From Argopecten irradians (taxonomy: Eukaryota; Mollusca; Bivalvia; Pectinida; Pectinidae): 64,000 nucleotides of DNA. Below are positions 11,814 to 60,600 of the stretch, one piece after another. The stretch covers positions 4,150,001 through 4,214,000 of the forward strand of contig NC_091134.1 of NCBI RefSeq assembly GCF_041381155.1, written 5' to 3'. Positions within the stretch are counted from its first letter, which is position 1, and each line of letters starts with the position of its first letter. The notes below the pieces were generated by a model. That model did no database searches, was not told where the DNA came from, and saw only the letters and a program-made list of their open reading frames with translations. Both the position numbers and the translations under genes were made by a program.

Positions 11814-12920
11814 CTATGGACAGGATAGTTGAACTCTGACCTTTGCCTTGGTGTTATGAAATTCTCGTATTTCGTATTCTTTCCTCACCATTGAGGCAAG
11901 GCCATCTTTATCTCTTTTTGGAATGCGGGCAAAGCCTATAAATAGTAGAAAGTTTGTGACGAGGACAGGGATGAGAACGGCTAAAACAAACACACCAGAA
12001 ACTGCGCAGAGGCAGCCGATTATTTTACCCGCCATGTTCCCTGGATGCATGTCTCCGTAGCCAACTGTTGTCATGGTGATAATCGCCCACCAAATGGCAT
12101 CTGGTATTGATGGAAACTGTTCACGGTCGAGGTAAAACACGGATGTTGAAAATATTAAAGCAGCCACCATAAGTAAAAATACCATTAACATCATGTTGGC
12201 GAAACTTGCCTTTACGGAATACACAAGAACTCGGAAACCAATGAAATTTTTAATGAGACGAAATAATCGGAAAACTCGTGCAATTTGTATACACTCAATT
12301 ATATCAAGTAGAGAAAAGCTTGTGAATCTTTCCTTCGGAAAAATGGTTTCAAATATCATGATGAGACATTCGGACGACAGAGCGACAATATCCACAATAT
12401 TTAAAATAGATTTAAAAAATCTTCTTTTTACGGGACAGAAGATAAATCGGATCGCAAACTCGATGGAAAAGTAGGTCACCATAACATAGTCGACGATGTC
12501 GAGGAAGTGGTATCGAGAGTGTAAATTCGTTGGTAGGGTTCTGTTGAAACTTGAAATTTGATTACTCGACAAAGTTTCATTATTAATTTGGTTAGCATCA
12601 TTACCGTCGCGCTTCTCCCGAGTTGGAGTTTGCGCACTTCCTGAAATATCACGTGATTGAGCTCCACCATTTCCTGTTTTATCCCCCCGAACTCTAGTTC
12701 TTTGAATGTCGGAGGTTCCTGAGGATTTTTCCGGTGGAAGTGTCGGCTTAGCAATAGATGCTTTCTTGTTTTCAAACATTTCGTCAAATTTCCCAGGTTC
12801 GCTTTTGTAGTATTCTTTCCATTCCGAGATTTCCAGCTCCCTCTGAAAGGCGGGATGTGTACTAGCACACAGGACAAATATGGAAATGACGATGAAGCAG
12901 GCAGAGATTCCAACGTAAGC
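11814..12920 (-). CDS. Kv coding exon 2: S1-S6 transmembrane core and C-terminus
   Basis: A single 1,107-base exon. It opens directly in S1 (AYVGISACFIVISIFVLC), runs through a Ser/Thr/Asn-rich S1-S2 linker, S2 (YVMVTYFSIEFAIRF), S3, S4 (ARVFRLFRLIK), the S4-S5 linker (VYSVKAS), S5, the pore helix with IPDAIWWAIITMTTVGYGD, and S6 with LAVLIPVLVTNF. It ends in a short basic tail. The in-frame Met at 12779 is internal, not the start: the frame stays open and conserved up to the acceptor at 12921. Confidence 0.92.
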   Translation of the reverse strand, partial: AYVGISACFIVISIFVLCASTHPAFQRELEISEWKEYYKSEPGKFDEMFENKKASIAKPTLPPEKSSGTSDIQRTRVRGDKTGNGGAQSRDISGSAQTPTREKRDGNDANQINNETLSSNQISSFNRTLPTNLHSRYHFLDIVDYVMVTYFSIEFAIRFIFCPVKRRFFKSILNIVDIVALSSECLIMIFETIFPKERFTSFSLLDIIECIQIARVFRLFRLIKNFIGFRVLVYSVKASFANMMLMVFLLMVAALIFSTSVFYLDREQFPSIPDAIWWAIITMTTVGYGDMHPGNMAGKIIGCLCAVSGVFVLAVLIPVLVTNFLLFIGFARIPKRDKDGLASMVRKEYEIREFHNTKAKVRVQLSCP

Positions 12921-52300: not shown

Positions 52301-54763
52301 ATGTTACCCGTTGTATTATATAACAATGCCAGCTTACGGGATATCGATACTAGTATTGTATGGTGTTATATATGTTACCCGTTTTTGTATTATATAACAA
52401 TGCCAGCTTACGGGATATCGATACCAGTATTATAGGGTGATATATATGTTACCCGTTTTTGTATTATATAACAATGCCAGCTTACGGGACATCGATACTA
52501 GTATTGTATGGTGTTATATATGTTACCCGTTTTTGTATTATATAACAATGCCAGCTTACGGGATATCGATACCAGTATTGTATGGTATTAGATATGTTAC
52601 CCGTTTCTGTTCCATACGCATAGCTAAAGACAGAAGAGGAAAGCTGTCGTCTTTGTTGAGTTGAAATGCTTTATCATCTTCACTCTCCTCCTCATCGTCA
52701 GACGACCTGGCGCTAGCCCCGGACAGAATACACTTAACGTCATCCGACGACCGACAGTTGTCCATCAGGCCTAGGGTGAACGTTTGGCATTGTTCATCTA
52801 GCTCCTGGTACGTTTTCTAGTCAAAGGCAAACACAAAAATGGGCTAAAATGTATATATTGTTTTTGTCATGCAAATCTATATATAAATCATAAGGTTGTT
52901 CCATTTTAAACAAAAATAACAATCAATTGTAATTTACAGGTGATGGTTTAACAGCATTAAAATGTTTCGGGGAAACGTAATAAAAATAACGTAATGTTAC
53001 CTAATCGGTTGAATCACTTACATAGACATAGCATCATATACTGAGGTGATTGTGCAATCATATATACCCCCTAATATCTTAAGCATTTTAGTTATAACTT
53101 TACAAATGTATAAAAAGTAAACTTTTATTTGGCATTGCCATACATTTGGCGGTTTTACATTTTATGCAGGAGGATGTTTTTTTCAGAAATTTATAGTTTT
53201 GCTATTTACATCTTTAAACGTGTCATAACTGTTTGTCAATATCAATGCATATAGTTAGCTAAACACTAATAATTGATCGAGTTTCTTCGTGTACAATGCT
53301 TCAAACTAGTGATTCATAGGCTGGAAAAAACCATACTTCTATACATAGCATTCAACGGGATTCAAAAGGAAACGATTATGTTTGCCTTTCATCTTTTACG
53401 ATAACTATACATAAAGCCAGTGAACTATCACATGCATTACTAATTACGTGTTAGCAGATTTAAATTGTAGCAAACAGAATGCACTTGAGTTTCGATTAAT
53501 GTAAAATTATCGCTCCATATACTGAAATTGATTCGATAGTGTTATTTGGTATTTAAACTTGTGTAGTAATGGTCTGCAGTGACTACGAATGCACTGTCCA
53601 TTAATATGTAAGATATTTTATATGTGTATTAAGTTTACATCGATATAAAATGTGATGGAGTATCAGAAACTGCTAAAATCAAAGTAGATATTACCTACTT
53701 GGCGGAATATCAGAAACTGCTAAAATCATAGTTAATATTATCTACTTGACGGAGTATATAATAAGATATACGATGCAACAGGTGATGGAATATGTTTTGT
53801 AAAAATATCCTTTTCGTGCGAGCATTTCATTCATTCTAATTGTTAGCTGAATAAATCCGAAATAAACAAATGTCCTAAAAACTATACGCATTTCGGAAAC
53901 AATAAATATCATTTAGCCCAGTTTCATCAACATTTCTGAACTTTATGGAATTCTAACTTTAAATTCCCCAAAGAAATGTATTACATGAGTGGCGACAAAT
54001 AACTTGATGTTACCTGATTTTCCGTCTCGATCATCTGTAGCCGTTTGAATCCCTTACTGAGATGGAAGCAGGCCATAATGGGATCCTCCTCAGTGAGTGA
54101 GATGTAGGCGGGGCTGGCCAGGGCCCTAAAGGTATCTAACCGGTTATTACAGAAGACCATGTAATCCCCTTCCCTATCATCAATACACTGGCGACACGAA
54201 CAGAAGTAGTCGTGGGGGATCTCTAAATAAACCGCCCTCAACATTATCATCTGGACAATCTGAAAATTATTCTTTATTGCCGCCCTCATCAGCGCCTCTT
54301 TTAACATTTTGTCTACCTTTGTGGCTCCCTTGCTCTCAATATCCTTTTCTACTATTTCAGGTTGTTTGCCATTTTGGAGCTCCTCGGTATCATCCATGTA
54401 AAGGTGCACGTCAGATTCCACAGTTCGACGTCGGTAGATTTGGTGACGTAATAGGATTTCACATAGTTCTGTTCTATTGTTATCAACCGCGCAAAGTAGA
54501 CCTTGGTGAACCTTTGGTCCAGATACCTTAGCGACCAAGAAAACAACCAGGGATTCCTTCCCTGACATAATCGCAAGGTCAAGGCCGGTACGTCCGAGTG
54601 AGTCTTCACAATCAGGAGATACAACGTCATTTTCAAGGACCTTTTTCACAACCTTTTCATCCCCAAGCTCGGCGGCGTCCAAAAATGTCCTTTCTGATTC
54701 ACTCAAACCGGGACGTAACCTCTCTGCAAGAACATTCAAACGGCGCTTCTTTTTGCAGCTCAT
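42110..54763 (-). CDS. TRPC: TRPC-family cation channel (complete, 12 coding exons)
   Basis: A canonical TRP channel of about 944 residues, a plasma-membrane non-selective Ca2+/Na+ channel of the receptor-operated type. Minus-strand exons: 54763-54014, 52816-52601, 50984-50817, 49876-49693, 49335-49042, 48785-48524, 48235-48004, 47295-47083, 46552-46502, 43324-43255, 42961-42786, 42328-42110. All phases agree. In order: ankyrin region; TRP_2 domain (FRALASPAYISLTEEDP); a TRPC zinc site HDYFCSCRQC; six helices; MPANETFG before S5; pore LVWSLLGFG; S6 LMNLLIAVMSNTFQEI; TRP box EWKFVRTELW; CIRB-type LVRRY; and a coiled coil. Exon 2 has a highly acidic insert (SDDEEESEDDK). Donors of exons 3, 6 and 7 are GTCGGT, GTCAGT and GTCAGT, unusual at +3. 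Intron 2 begins with a donor-repeating array. The subtype (vertebrate-like TRPC or fly TRP/TRPgamma) is undecided. Confidence 0.93.
43078..43140 (+). mobile_element. Degenerate fragment related to MITE family B
   Basis: The sequence ending AACGTAGAAGGTCTTTAAAA and the preceding AATTAAAAAAACAGTTTCAG line up with the 3' end of the family B elements (AATTAAAAGCCGTTTCGG, then the terminal repeat). Weak similarity by eye, in the short TRPC intron between exons 10 and 11. Confidence 0.3.
43722..43744. repeat. AT dinucleotide microsatellite
   Basis: An uninterrupted run of alternating A and T (about 11 repeats) in a TRPC intron. Confidence 0.95.
45960..46290. repeat. Dispersed repeat, copy 2
   Basis: Related to about 240-560 in this window in the same orientation: shared words include CTTTACAATTACT, ATTTGTACATGT, AAACTATACATT and TTTTGTAATTATCAAAA-like strings in the same order. 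It lies in the TRPC intron between exons 9 and 10. More diverged than the MITE pairs, so older. Family unknown. Confidence 0.55.
48004..49876 (-). CDS. TRPC: TRPC membrane-core exons 4-7 (S1-S6 and pore)
   Basis: Exons 49876-49693, 49335-49042, 48785-48524 and 48235-48004. Exon 5 starts GLIWEEVKQIYRAGAQDYL, which matches the TRPC G-I/L-W-xE-K-I/Y-x-G pattern ahead of the second helix. Exon 6 carries ISFIMPANETFGTMLVSF, the TRPC S4-S5 linker. Exon 7 carries the pore helix (FSGTLFLLVWSLLGFG), where vertebrate TRPCs have LFW; the tryptophan is kept. It also carries S6. An extracellular NMT/NMS sequon pair is visible in exon 5. Confidence 0.9.
51702..52606 (-). repeat. 74-bp tandem array repeating the TRPC exon 2 splice donor
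   Basis: About 12 units with a regular 74-bp period at each end (CCAGCTTACGGG at about 51775, 51849, 51923, 51997 and so on) and several shortened, irregular units at about 52020-52320. On the coding (minus) strand every unit contains ACAAAAACGG/GTAACATA, almost the same as the authentic exon 2 edge ACAGAAACGG/GTAACATA at 52601/52600. The array starts at this junction and fills the first 0.9 kb of intron 2. Each unit also has a second donor-like CCC/GTAAGC. Confidence 0.9.
53655..53757. repeat. 47-bp tandem duplication
   Basis: Two diverged copies starting near 53661 and 53708 (TATCAGAAACTGCTAAAATC in both), in TRPC intron 1. Confidence 0.75.
54014..54763 (-). CDS. TRPC: TRPC coding exon 1: ankyrin region, zinc site and TRP_2
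   Basis: Codes residues 1-250 in one 750-base exon. Ankyrin-type helices start at ERTFLDAAELGDEKVVKKVL and include DSLGRTGLDLAIMSGKESL. A non-conserved charged loop (about 118-150) follows, then the HX3CXCX2C zinc site (H184, C188, C190, C193) and the TRP_2 segment. ATG at 54763 is chosen because the conserved domain begins 25 residues later and the basic N-terminus (CKKKRR) is typical. Donor CAG/GTAACA is phase 0. Confidence 0.92.
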
Positions 54764-57647
54764 ATTTATAGTAATTTATGTATTGCTCCTAGTCTCCAAA
54801 AGTCTTAAACACTGGTTAAAATACTGCAATAGTTAACTTGACTCTCTTATGCGTTGTTTTTTGAGTCATTGACCACTGCACATCAGTGCATGCCGTCCTT
54901 AGTAGATATTGTCTATCGATGTGCCTGCTGTAACAAGTTAGCTCACCATCTACATCAATAATGTAATGTAACTTATATTTTGATTGGACGAAATCGGTAT
55001 CCTATAACGCGCTATTGTTCCACGCGCGCTCGAGCAAGTCATGCGACATCTGTTGCACTGGGTTGTAATCCCGTTTTTTATGTTAATGATAATTGATGTA
55101 AATCATAAGTCGGTCGTTGAATGCTGCATGGTTGGAAGTCTATTATAATGCTTTCGTACTGTTGACATTTTGACAAATTGGAAGGATAATTTCTGTCGAT
55201 TTCCGTGTTACACTTGAGCACTATATGTGGTATCGGGTTAAAGTCAATATCATAGATATTTCGTATCAATCATGTCTTACGAAAATTGCAAATAGATATA
55301 CCTTTAATGATCTATCGAAAGTTAATATTACATGCATTTTAACTAGATAACTATTAGATGTGTGTGATAGGTACCTGATGAGTATTCAGGATCATTCTAT
55401 TACGTACGACGAAAATATCACAGTTCCGCACCACTTTAATCCAGCCGATTAGAAAACCATCAGAAAACTAACAGTTTGCGCCCTTGTTTTCTAAATTAAT
55501 ACGGTGATGAGACGGAGAACATTCGTACCACCTACATGCATAGTATTACCGTGAGCAAAGAGGATTTCGACGTGACATTTTATTATTTGCTGATATCATA
55601 ATTATATTACGCCAATGTAAGCTGAAATATATATAATTAGAGCCAACCTCTCTTGAATCAGGATGTTGCTGTATTTTGAAATGTGCATCTCTCCATCATG
55701 CATAATTAATGAAAAAAGGCACCCAATGCATTTATTTTTTGGTGGAAAGGTCAATTTACGCCGGCTATAAAAATGTGATTTTCAGCTCAAATGTTACCGT
55801 TAATGTTGTGGAGAAAGAAATTTCTGGATACTACACCAAATGGCTGTGGCGTTTGGATGTTTTACACAATAACATACTGTAAAGGATGCGTCCGTTGTGT
55901 GATGAGACCTTTGGGTCCCCTTCCAAATCCGCCATAGTTCCACATCAAAGAAAAAAATAGCTATACTGTAGCCGCATGCCTTTTTATTGATCGGAAGTCG
56001 GTGCATAATGAACTCATTATTAAACACCAAATTACAATACGCCGAATGGAAATGTCAGGCAAATGTTTTGGACCATTACACAGAAGATATTAGTAACTTT
56101 TTAGCTCCCCAGGCATTCCATCTCCTGTATATTAATAATAGTAGTGTTGGGTAGGTATCTTTGGGAGTAGTTTGCTGCATGATCAAATCGTGTGTAATGG
56201 ATATAGGCTTGGCAGTGAGAGAAATAACGAAAAGACTTCTTTGCTTGAATCCACGTGTTTATCAACCGGAACTGTTACAAGTAAATCTCCAAACAGAATA
56301 TGGACAATAATTCCGGATACTTCTCTGGTGGTCACATAAATATATATTACATATATATATATTACACGTGTATGATGCTCTGTCTGTCATGGCGACTTTA
56401 TTGGAATGTTGCCTTAATAATTCACAAACTGTCTGTTAACAAATAAAAAGTCTACACACGACTTCTTGATTTTTGTCCAGTTAATGTGTTTTTTCTCATA
56501 ATGTTTAAGTTATTTTATGTTCGTATACCATTTATATTGTGACTGAATTACCAGAAATTGAAGGCAGTTCATTAAACATTAGTAATTCTGCATTTTTTAA
56601 GTCTCGTCGACTCCTCCATGGTAATTACGCGATTTAATTTTCCTGATGTCTAAACTTACCATAAATATCATATCTATAAAGTGGTACAGTAGAACTTTGT
56701 GTATATATGTACTTGGACTATGATCGAAAAGTGTTCATCGTATGATAGTAACAGTAGCGGGTTCATCTAAAGGTCGTATGCAAATCATTAAATTCTTATT
56801 ACATAGTGTTCAAAACTAGATAACAATGTTATGCTTAACGTTCTATTCTGAGTTCTATGTTTACATTGAAAAGGTCTGTCTAGCTTCCTCAAATTAAACT
56901 TGTAAAATGTAGGCTGGGTCTTCTTACAAATCCTAGTATGCATTATAACATGGCTGAGATATAGTGACCACATTAAGTTTGACTATTGAACTGACTATTA
57001 AGAAACCTAATGTGAGCAAACTTATAAAGTTTTACTAGTAGAAGGACAACAATAGTTGAAGGAAATCAGTAAAAAAAAATGCAGATAATATACCCCCTTT
57101 CCCTTTCATGGCGCCAAGATCCCTCTGCAATATAGGATTTCTTTTCAAATATCATCTAAATTACAATCAATGTCGGAGGTATCTTACAATTATACTTATA
57201 AACAGAGTTGATACTAACGCAATAAAGATGTTAATTATCTGTGTGAATTAACTATTATAATAATGTTCATTTATATTTTTCAGAAATACATGTACATAAT
57301 GTACATGTTTCTGGATTTTCTAATTCAAGCTTTAGAAAAAAAAATAGATCAATTTAAAAAAAGAAGAAACAAAAATGTTAGCGTAAAAATTTCAGTAAAA
57401 ACGGTAAACTACATATTTTTTTAAATGACATGCGATGGAGGTACAACATGTACTTAAAAAATTAACGCTTTCCCTCCACCGAAAAAATATCCCACTTGGG
57501 CCTCACACCTATCAAAAGTTCGCGGTTCCGGTAGGGGGAGTAACTCTAATACGTCGCTGAGAAATTTACCTGGATGATTGCAACATGTCCCTTGAGCTGC
57601 TTACCGACTACTATATATAAACATCGTTAGATTTTGCGGAATTCAGC
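54764..57647. other. Bidirectional intergenic region between TRPC and MFSD8
   Basis: TRPC (-) and MFSD8-like (+) start codons face each other across 2.9 kb. No coding exon is recognised. Short open frames (55078-55269, 55800-56030, 56788-56973, all minus) show nothing familiar. TRPC 5' UTR exons may lie here. A TATATAAA at 57613-57620 is only about 30 bases before the MFSD8 ATG, which is too close to be a convincing promoter. Confidence 0.4.
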
Positions 57648-60600
57648 ATGGTTACACTGAAAACAAGAAAACGCATATCATACGTAACTCTGGGGTTCTT
57701 CTTTTTAATGGGAGGCATTGAATATGGTAAGTAACTACTGAGATACACCGATGTTACAGTAACGAACAGGCCTAACAGTACAGTACAGATACACTTGTAC
57801 AATAACTTCAGATACACATGTACAATAACTACAGATACACACGTGCAATAACTACAAATACACATGTGCAATAACTACAAATACACATGTTCAGTAACTA
57901 CAATACAGATTACAGTACTTACATGTATGTAGTTACTGAGCAGCACTGACAGTACTAGGTTATACAGTAACTTACATGTAGAGCTAGCTAGTATACATGT
58001 AACCGAAAACTCAGTGTGTAACATCATATTCAGAGTGAAGACCGAAAACTCAGCGTGTTACACTATATTCAGAGTGAAGACCGAAAACTCAGCCTGTTAT
58101 ATTATATTCAGAGTGAAGACCGAAAACTCAGAGTGTAAGATTAAATTCAGCATCTCAGAATTCATATTTATTTGTCCTTGCTTCCGATGACCAGTTAGCC
58201 GACCGGACACAGGTAAATCTGTCTATCACAGCAGGAGGCTGAAGAGTGTCGTCTGTGGATGAGGCTTGCATACATTTAACTTAAAATAAAGGCCATCTTC
58301 ATTAGACAATGAGTATGAAACTCATATTGAGAAACCGATAAAGTTCCTTTCTTAAACAATTCCTGGAAGTATATTGGTAAAGCTATATAGCGGTCGTTAG
58401 CTAAATTAGAGACGATACACTATACGTACACAAGAAGGTTTTATGAATTCGTATGTCATAACAAATTAGTTATTGACCACGGACAATTGTATTTAGTCCT
58501 GGCTATAGTTTTAGACATGTTACGATGAAAAAGACTAGTGATGGTAAGTTCAGAAAAGGTCGTAATAATTCAGACGGTCAATATAAATTTAAGAATGGAC
58601 ATTGATAATCAGTGATGTTTTTCGAAAAATGGTGTCAAAATTCATATTAGTAGAGACACTTTAAGGTGCGGGATAAGGGAATTTGGAGTCCATTGAATTA
58701 TTTGTCATACACATATAGTTGTTCGTATCGTCGAGATCTAGTAATAGAGTCTACATGTTGTCCTTCAATATTTGACTCGGACTCGGTCGCTTCATTTGAC
58801 CGTCTCTATTATATTAGACTGATGTCACCAACATTAGATCCCGTTGCTGAAAATTATGCCACCACTATAAAATTAACATAAATAATTATCAATTGTTTAG
58901 CGGCTATATCTCGTACGTGTACATTTTGAGGACCTGGATATAAACATTCTTTGACCTCACACTATTTTTTCTGAGGAACAGTGCCTGTACCGGGCCAGTG
59001 ATTGACAGCTCAACTACGCAGTAGCATACGAGGTGTGATGCCCCCCGTGGCTAGGTAGGACCGACCCGGGGTCCCAGCTCTGCAAAAGTTTGATTGACAC
59101 AAAACTCTGAATTTAACAGAACACGCTGAATATAATTGGACATGCTGAGTTTAACCGGACAACTCTGAATTTAACAGAACACACTGAATATAATCGGACA
59201 CGCTGAGTTTAATCTGACAGGCTGAATTTAATCTTCCACTCTGAGTTTTCGGTCTTCACTCTGAATATAATGTAACAATTTGAGTTTTCATGGTTCACTC
59301 TGAATATAATGTAACACGCTGAGTTTTCGGTCTTCACTCTGAATATAATGTAACACGCTGAGTTTTCGGTCTTCACTCTGAATATAATGTAACACGCTGA
59401 GTTTTCGGTCTTCACTCTGAATATAATATAACACGCTGAGTTTTCGGTCTTCACTCTGAATATAATATAACACGCTGAGTTTTCGGTCTTCACTCTGAAT
59501 ATAATGTAACACGCTGAGTTTTCGGTCTTCACTCTGAATATAATGTTACACACTGAGTTTTCGGTTACAATTCTGAATATAACCTGACCACACTGAATAT
59601 AACCTCACCACTCTGAATACAATCGTAACACGCTGAAAAACTCAGAGTTGTTGGTTAAAACTACCCAAAAACAAGGAAATTCAGAGTTTTATATCCACCA
59701 GTGACAGTACTCCAACAATGTTAGAGTTAGGCCTGACGAGACACTTTTGATCATTAGGTCGGTCGATATTGCCCATCAGAATTTTCTCAATATCGACGTC
59801 TAATATTATTGGATTAACGGGCACTGATCATGAGGCACAGGAGCTTGACGTTCTGTCCATAATATACTGTATATAGCATAAATATATAAAAGAATACCCC
59901 CGAGGCCTATATACTACATGTATTATAAATATGTATTTTTTTTATATACATGTAGTATGTAGCAGGATTGGACTGGGTCGATTTCGGTGACCAGGTAGCT
60001 CAACCGATAGAGCACTCAGCTAGTGTTCGGAGGGTCCCAGGTTCAAATCCCGGTCTGGCCACTACATTTTCTCCTCTCCTATTACAGAATTGGCGCCCAA
60101 CTAAGTCCAAAGTGGTGGTTTTTAGAAGGGTCCTATATGTCTTCGAGAGCGAAGACATCGAGAAAGGAGGGAGGAGTGTAGCGGGATTGGACTTGAACGA
60201 TCATCGGTGACCTGAGGTAGCTAAGTGGGTAGAGCACTCCTCTAGTGTTCAGAGGGACCCAGGTTCAAATCCCGGTCTGGCCGCTACATTTTCTCCTCTC
60301 CTGTTACAAGTATATAAGGCGAATTTTTTATATATATATTTATGCTATAATATATTATGGACAGAATGTCAAGCTCCTGTGATACAGGCTTCACTTGTTT
60401 CGGCGATAAATTAAAGATAATTTGAGTTGTTCTTCAAGAGACATTGAGAAAATCAAAGCTGTTGTTGAATCTTATATTACGAGGTATACTCTTTGGTGCA
60501 TTTATAAAAATTTTTTTTACATTTTGATTTTCACAGGTTATTGTTAATATGTTTAACATCTTTAAATGAAAAAGTAACTTGTGTGGCATCTGGCCTTATG

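What the first reader, a model, noticed from the sequence alone, without database searches (positions are those of the whole stretch)
59958..60308. TRIM-like element whose LTRs carry tRNA-like Pol III promoters
Seen directly: TG...CA direct repeats, primer-binding site, polypurine tract and AGTA target duplication, plus consensus A and B boxes and tRNA-like D and acceptor stems in both LTRs. Plant Cassandra TRIMs carry 5S rRNA sequence in their LTRs; a tRNA-bearing version in an invertebrate would be a parallel case. The primer site fits tRNA-Lys(CUU), and the D arm of the tRNA-like domain also resembles tRNA-Lys, hinting at a link between the primer and the LTR-borne sequence (inference).
Basis: partly seen in the sequence, partly recalled or inferred. 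Interest (0 to 1): 0.72.

Follow-up and report, generated by a model that had tools for sequence, protein, structure and literature searches.

The report
tRNA-bearing mini LTR retrotransposon (Helenus-type)

Summary
Window 59958-60308 is a 351-bp TRIM: two TG...CA LTRs (129 and 132 bp), a 90-bp non-coding interior with primer site and polypurine tract, and an AGTA duplication. The 846-Mb host genome holds 1,098 exact matches to a 25-bp LTR end. Of 63 non-redundant complete-ended entries, 41 have perfect 4-bp target duplications. Identical LTR pairs, single LTRs and tandem arrays occur. The LTR domain is a tRNA relative (Rfam 50.2 bits in two young copies, 34.6 in the window 5' LTR), nearest to host tRNA-Lys among the few tRNAs compared. 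The primer site matches the 3' end of host tRNA-Lys(CUU) over 11 nt. This is the kind Kojima named Helenus in 2024 (PMC10886601), found in pteriomorph bivalves, with 4-bp duplications in animals and tRNA-Lys among its primers; so it is not a new kind. The host was not identified, nor was the family matched to a published sequence. One mechanistic point stays open: 82 of 86 LTRs carry TTTT, nearly always just after the tRNA-like domain, so a full-length Pol III transcript must read through a terminator in the 5' LTR. The window copy is old and has an extra internal TTTTT.

The parts
59954..59957 (+). 5' target-site duplication AGTA
59958..60086 (+). 5' LTR, 129 bp, TG...CA
   Evidence: 90.8% to the LTR of L003
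59989..60061 (+). tRNA-like domain of 5' LTR (Rfam RF00005, 34.6 bits)
   Evidence: L082 186-258 converted to window coordinates
59996..60006 (+). A box TAGCTCAACCG
   Evidence: sequence; pattern counts in 100 LTRs
60040..60050 (+). B box GGTTCAAATCC
   Evidence: sequence
60067..60070 (+). TTTT, putative Pol III terminator in 5' LTR
   Evidence: TTTT present in 41 of 43 5' LTRs
60087..60176 (+). internal domain, 90 bp, non-coding (93 bp in typical copies)
60091..60101 (+). primer-binding site, 11 nt complementary to the 3' end (with CCA) of host tRNA-Lys(CUU)
60119..60123 (+). TTTTT private to this copy (0 of the 42 other internal domains has TTTT)
60138..60155 (+). small internal hairpin GTCTTCGAGAGCGAAGAC
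   Evidence: sequence; the corresponding stem of L003 is in the fold (z -2.0 for the whole interior)
60160..60176 (+). polypurine tract
60177..60308 (+). 3' LTR, 132 bp, TG...CA
   Evidence: 89.4% to the LTR of L003
60211..60284 (+). tRNA-like domain of 3' LTR, decayed (below the Rfam threshold); BLAST covers 60215-60284, the first four bases are extrapolated
60218..60229 (+). A box region TAGCTAAGTGGG
   Evidence: sequence
60262..60272 (+). B box GGTTCAAATCC
   Evidence: sequence
60289..60292 (+). TTTT, putative Pol III terminator in 3' LTR
   Evidence: TTTT present in 41 of 43 3' LTRs
60309..60312 (+). 3' target-site duplication AGTA
59836..60381 (.). host MITE-like repeat with 56-bp inverted repeats (59836-59891 / 60326-60381, 82% complementary) that the TRIM interrupts

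Best explanation
It is a decayed copy of a non-coding Helenus-type LTR retrotransposon (TRIMp3). The tRNA-derived part of the LTR supplies A and B boxes. RNA polymerase III starts a few bases upstream of the A box in the 5' LTR, reads through the TTTT there in a fraction of rounds, and stops at the TTTT of the 3' LTR, so the RNA has a repeated R region made mostly of the tRNA-like domain. Proteins of an autonomous 4-bp-duplicating (Gypsy-like) LTR retrotransposon copy it: tRNA-Lys(CUU) primes the minus strand at the 11-nt site, the polypurine tract primes the plus strand, and the integrase inserts it with a 4-bp duplication. Recombination between LTRs, or template switching, then gives solo LTRs and (LTR-interior)n-LTR arrays. 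Shown: anatomy, repeat ends, duplications, copy number, primer match, tRNA homology, arrays, T-runs. Inferred: Pol III use, read-through, R region, helper. The confidence given is for identity and mode of insertion; for Pol III as maker of the full-length template I would say about 0.6.
For: 1,098 exact LTR-end and 255 exact primer-site matches, backwards controls 0. 43 of 66 complete-ended entries with a perfect 4-bp duplication, random pairing mean 1.7 (maximum 8 in 2,000), shifted registers 0-2 of 66; without repeats of one insertion 41 of 63 perfect and 53 of 63 with at least 3 of 4. The 41 target sites lean to a symmetric ATA-CATG-TAT pattern, as expected of an integrase. Identical LTR pairs in 5 of 43 two-LTR copies. 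Of 5 arrays (3 or 6 LTRs), 3 carry one perfect duplication for the whole array. Rfam tRNA 50.2 bits in the LTRs of L003 and L099; 75 ARAGORN tRNA calls on 100 LTRs, 31 Thr and 42 without an assigned amino acid. Primer site 11 of 11 to the host tRNA-Lys(CUU) end. TTTT in 41 of 43 5' and 41 of 43 3' LTRs and in 1 of 43 interiors. Published Helenus has the same anatomy, 4-bp duplications in animals, and tRNA-Lys among bivalve primers.
Against: No transcription data. A TTTT in the 5' LTR should stop much Pol III transcription before the primer site. The lack of T-runs in the interior is not significant (77% of Markov shuffles also lack them), and part of the copies were chosen by a motif that contains the TTTT. 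A and B boxes are not better conserved than the rest of the LTR; strict A and B together are in 69 of 100 LTRs. The 74-nt domain does not fold better than shuffles. The primer match stops at 11 nt. No autonomous partner was found: two Lys-primed LTR-like loci examined of 49 share only 13 nt with the TRIM, and Pfam finds no family in their partial frames. One copy (L068) has a 5-bp duplication and one array (L004) a 9-bp flank repeat.
Confidence: 0.9

Rival explanations
1. Same element, but the retrotransposition template is a Pol II transcript, and the tRNA-like domain is a passenger or serves another purpose (short tRNA-like RNA, insulator, decoy for silencing).
For: TTTT lies before the primer site in 41 of 43 5' LTRs, so Pol III alone would mostly make a short RNA; boxes are no better conserved than neighbouring sequence.
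Against: Consensus A and B boxes in the copies printed and together in 69 of 100 LTRs; Cassandra, by the published account the validated case, uses Pol III; the length of 353 bp is in the range that Kojima links to Pol III processivity.
Confidence: 0.25
2. A tRNA-derived SINE or SINE dimer.
For: tRNA-derived part with A and B boxes; high copy number.
Against: Outer ends are TG...CA, not the tRNA start; 74 of 100 chains start at LTR position 1 and 82 of 100 end at 130; A-runs in the 3' flank of 2 of 66; 4-bp duplications; polypurine tract and primer site.
Confidence: 0.02
3. A tandem duplication of a tRNA-like gene with spacer, not a mobile element.
For: Arrays with 223-bp period exist.
Against: Matches on 15 of the 16 large contigs in the list, separate target duplications, single LTRs, and an interrupted MITE-like element at the window site.
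Confidence: 0.01

Closest known systems
Helenus (TRIMp3; Kojima 2024, PMC10886601), molluscan families
   Same: TRIM with tRNA-like sequence in both LTRs, tRNA-Lys among the primers used in bivalves, polypurine tract, 4-bp duplications in animals, solo LTRs, tandem arrays (reported for zebrafish LTR-11_DR), tRNA-Thr predictions in seven bivalve families.
   Different: No difference of kind seen. Sequence identity to a published family could not be tested (supplement not readable here).
Cassandra (plants; via Kojima 2024, PMC10886601, and passages of Kalendar 2020, PMC7215508)
   Same: Non-coding TRIM with a Pol III gene-derived LTR domain and long tandem arrays.
   Different: 5S rRNA, not tRNA; plants; by Kojima's account its RNA has 18-bp end duplications, whereas here a Pol III R region would be about 85-90 bp (inference).
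biv-TRIM (Satovic 2019, PMC6934838; abstract and passages seen)
   Same: Bivalve TRIM with solo and tandem forms and small internal inverted repeats.
   Different: No canonical primer site could be identified there; the passages seen report no tRNA-derived LTR domain.
tRNA-derived SINEs
   Same: tRNA-derived internal Pol III promoter.
   Different: No LTRs, mobilised by LINEs with variable duplications and 3' tails (established knowledge).

Membership tests
Helenus / TRIMp3 | Short non-coding element with two LTRs (TRIM, mostly under 1 kb) | tested here: met
   351 bp in the window, 353 bp in many copies, interior 90-93 bp
Helenus / TRIMp3 | tRNA-derived sequence inside the LTRs with A and B boxes | tested here: met
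   Rfam tRNA in both LTRs of L003, L007, L091 and L099, in the single LTR of L012, and in the 5' LTR only of the window copy; strict A and B consensus together in 69 of 100 LTRs
Helenus / TRIMp3 | Primer-binding site after the 5' LTR | tested here: met
   11 nt to host tRNA-Lys(CUU), four bases after the LTR
Helenus / TRIMp3 | Polypurine tract before the 3' LTR | tested here: met
   60160-60176 and the same stretch in the eight full copies printed
Helenus / TRIMp3 | 4-bp target duplication (animal Helenus) | tested here: met
   41 of 63 non-redundant complete-ended entries perfect, 53 of 63 with 3 of 4 or better; exceptions L068 (5 bp) and L004 (9-bp flank repeat)
Helenus / TRIMp3 | Transcription by RNA polymerase III | not testable with these tools
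   sequence signals only; also unproved for Helenus in the defining paper
Helenus / TRIMp3 | Mobilised by Gypsy-type LTR retrotransposons (animal Helenus, proposed) | tested here: inconclusive
   49 exact 18-nt Lys primer sites exist in the genome; the 2 of 49 loci read share only 13 nt with the TRIM and gave no Pfam family
Helenus / TRIMp3 | Sequence match to a published molluscan Helenus consensus | not testable with these tools
   consensus sequences are in the supplement or Repbase, not held here
Cassandra | 5S rRNA-derived sequence in the LTRs | tested here: not met
   six loci scanned against Rfam: ten hits, all tRNA
tRNA SINE | Ends at the tRNA unit and a 3' tail, no LTRs | tested here: not met

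The most novel reading that the evidence does not exclude
The element's R region is bounded by Pol III signals alone: start just upstream of the A box and stop at the TTTT after the tRNA-like domain. It would thus live by terminator choice (ignored in the 5' LTR, used in the 3' LTR), a Pol III analogue of retroviral poly(A)-site choice, and would make two RNAs: a short tRNA-like one from any LTR, solo LTRs included, and a rare full-length template.
Probability: 0.4. Interest if true: 0.5.

Novelty: already known. Interest (0 to 1): 0.25.

Why it matters
It confirms, with host-genome counts, that tRNA-bearing TRIMs are true LTR elements that have made recent copies in this animal. It also makes an open point testable: whether a Pol III terminator inside the 5' LTR is read through to make the template. 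Practically, such LTRs can inflate tRNA annotation: ARAGORN makes 75 tRNA calls on 100 LTRs.

Tried and rejected
SINE dimer: rejected by ends, duplications and lack of A tails. A pairing link between LTR and primer site: not seen (longest exact complement 6 nt). A tRNA-Thr origin from the anticodon call: the whole domain is nearer to host tRNA-Lys (54 of 73 for UUU, 52 of 73 for CUU) than to Gln or Gly, but only Lys, Gln, Gly and one odd, intron-like call were available for comparison; Thr, Ala, Val and others were not compared. Selection against T-runs: not significant. Better conservation of A/B boxes: not seen. RNA fold of the domain: no better than shuffles. Autonomous partner: four primer-site hits without an exact LTR end nearby (L117-L120) were all TRIM copies, L119 with one LTR only; two Lys-primed loci gave no match beyond the primer site. 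An asymmetric form of about 289 bp looked like a new subtype, but the 4 of 40 sampled loci that have it share their flanks: one insertion carried along by another repeat; a second such group is also 4 of 40.

Rows dropped before counts: chains within 8 bases of a locus end, and repeats with the same 10-bp flanks (134 rows to 100 unique); 34 of 100 without both outer LTR ends; L086, L087 and L106 as repeats of other insertions (66 to 63). Three of the non-matching entries kept in the 63 (L019, L104, L120) are 3' LTRs of copies interrupted in the interior, so their left flank is element sequence; without them it would be 41 of 60.

Full report
1. The observation. A and B boxes can be read in both LTRs. 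ARAGORN finds no tRNA in the window, and Rfam's tRNA model reaches threshold only in the 5' LTR (34.6 bits).

2. The family in the host genome. The window lies in an 846-Mb genome held here without a name. The whole element gave 49 matches from 40 scored of 2,454 candidates, many of them 353 bp. A 25-bp LTR end has 1,098 exact matches and a 25-bp primer-site stretch 255, with 0 for the backwards controls. These 40 loci hold 42 chains with that end: 29 LTR-interior-LTR (full or internally deleted), 9 single LTRs, 3 one-LTR fragments and 1 array. Of the 9 single LTRs, that of L104 is probably the 3' LTR of an interrupted copy and those of L093, L098 and L111 are truncated. The sample was chosen by an intact LTR 3' end, so it says nothing about decay of that end.

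3. Mode of insertion. Among all loci read by then, 100 unique chains were found and 66 had both outer LTR ends; 43 of 66 carry a perfect 4-bp duplication exactly at TG...CA, against a mean of 1.7 for random pairing (maximum 8 in 2,000) and 0-2 for shifted registers. Three of the 66 repeat other insertions inside amplified flanks; without them it is 41 of 63, and 53 of 63 with at least three of four. Three of the remaining misses (L019, L104, L120) are 3' LTRs of interrupted copies, so the true rate is a little higher. Exceptions are L068 (5 bp) and the L004 array (a 9-bp flank repeat). The 41 target sites lean to a symmetric ATA-CATG-TAT pattern. The window copy interrupts a MITE-like element with 56-bp inverted repeats, and relatives of that element run across the site in at least 15 places (identity about 70%, so these are paralogous, not allelic, empty sites).

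4. Age and arrays. Of 43 two-LTR copies, 5 have identical LTRs; the window copy has 16 mismatches and 3 gap positions between its LTRs (K = 0.124), the second most diverged of the 43. No date was computed. Five arrays were seen with both ends: three with 3 LTRs and two with 6 LTRs; LTRs are shared between neighbouring units, and 3 of 5 arrays carry one perfect duplication around the whole array. They therefore arose by recombination after insertion, or by concatenation before it, not by repeated insertion (inference).

5. The tRNA-like domain. In young copies it covers LTR positions 33-106 and scores up to 50.2 bits to Rfam tRNA. There are 75 ARAGORN tRNA calls on 100 LTRs: 31 Thr, 42 unassigned, 1 Ser, 1 Ala; the unassigned ones shown (L006, L007) have a four-base anticodon, that is, a loop with one extra base. 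The domain agrees with host tRNA-Lys at 54 of 73 (UUU) and 52 of 73 (CUU) positions, with 20 identical bases in a row across the D arm; other tRNAs compared were only Gln, Gly and one odd, intron-like call. Kojima's Figure 2 aligns molluscan Helenus with a tRNA-Lys (legend), and he reports Thr predictions in seven bivalve families. A and B boxes are not better conserved than the rest, and the domain does not fold better than shuffles.

6. Primer. The host has 34 exact tRNA-Lys(CUU)-type 3' halves; five were read for this and all are tRNA-Lys(CUU). The primer site matches their 3' end plus CCA over 11 nt and then stops. There are 49 full 18-nt Lys primer sites in the genome, so other Lys-primed LTR elements probably exist. 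Two of the 49 were read: both have the site 1 nt after an LTR-like CA and share 13 nt with the TRIM; their partial frames match no Pfam family at E 0.01, although one holds a DSG motif that I read, from recall, as retropepsin-like. The helper is unknown.

7. Transcription model. TTTT is present in 41 of 43 5' and 41 of 43 3' LTRs (nearly always around position 111, after the tRNA-like domain) and in 1 of 43 interiors, the window's own; part of these copies were chosen by a motif with the TTTT. So Pol III starting in the 5' LTR meets a terminator before the primer site, and would have to read through it to make a template ending at the same place in the 3' LTR. This gives a natural R region, but the read-through is inferred, and lack of interior T-runs is expected by composition in 77% of shuffles. 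The one mention of terminators in Kojima's main text concerns Cassandra.

8. What is known. Kojima 2024 (PMC10886601; parts 1-4 of 6 of the text, and tables and legends, read) defines Helenus as TRIMs with tRNA-derived LTR sequence, in six animal phyla, with 51 families in pteriomorph bivalves including Argopecten irradians, 4-bp duplications in animals, Lys among bivalve primers, and tandem arrays in zebrafish. The features that could be decided here are met; transcription, helper and sequence identity to a listed family could not be decided. Satovic 2019 (abstract and passages) reports another bivalve TRIM; Kalendar 2020 (passages) reports Cassandra arrays. A search for TRIMp3 found no paper on these elements other than Kojima's; the listings showed me no further description of tRNA-bearing TRIMs by title and abstract start. 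The host seems to have 16 chromosome-size contigs (C16 34.5 Mb, C18 0.41 Mb, C17 not seen), and bay scallop has 16 chromosomes (passages of PMC8328476); that is compatible with Argopecten but was not tested. Novelty is given as already known because the kind, in this sort of host, is in print; if the host proves to be another species, this family would be a new member of a known kind.

9. Verdict. The open and useful part is the terminator inside the 5' LTR.

Noticed in passing
window 58002-58150 and 59222-59582: The same 39-bp minisatellite unit occurs as two arrays in opposite orientation about 1 kb apart, just upstream of the TRIM; possibly the inner repeats of a larger mobile element.
   Followed up: no
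window 59836-60381: MITE-like element with 56-bp inverted repeats; its relatives match on both strands at the same places, so it is close to palindromic; many diverged relatives in the genome.
   Followed up: partly
G000 C15:3407578-3435147, C16:16665617-16684913, C762: tRNA-Lys(CUU)-type sequences in tandem arrays, on C15 and C16 in units of about 2.75 kb; the unit read also holds a tRNA-Gly. tRNA-Lys(UUU)-type sequences lie in arrays with many spacings of about 1.6 kb; the unit read also holds two tRNA-Gln genes.
   Followed up: partly
L080, L087, L103, L105; and L086, L100, L106, L109: Two groups of four C1 loci, each a single TRIM insertion copied along with its flanks by another repeat or duplication; in the first group the 5' LTR has lost the B-box half of its tRNA-like domain.
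   Followed up: partly
G000 C18:202225-213145 and C9:182075-198878: Full 18-nt Lys primer sites spaced about 5.5 kb apart, suggesting tandem arrays of an autonomous LTR element too.
   Followed up: partly
window 11814-12920 (-), 53981-54775 (-), about 60900 onward (+): Voltage-gated channel exon (Pfam Ion_trans, Ion_trans_2), TRP channel exon (TRP_2, ankyrin), and what looks by recall like an MFS transporter (MFSD8-like) gene next to the TRIM.
   Followed up: no
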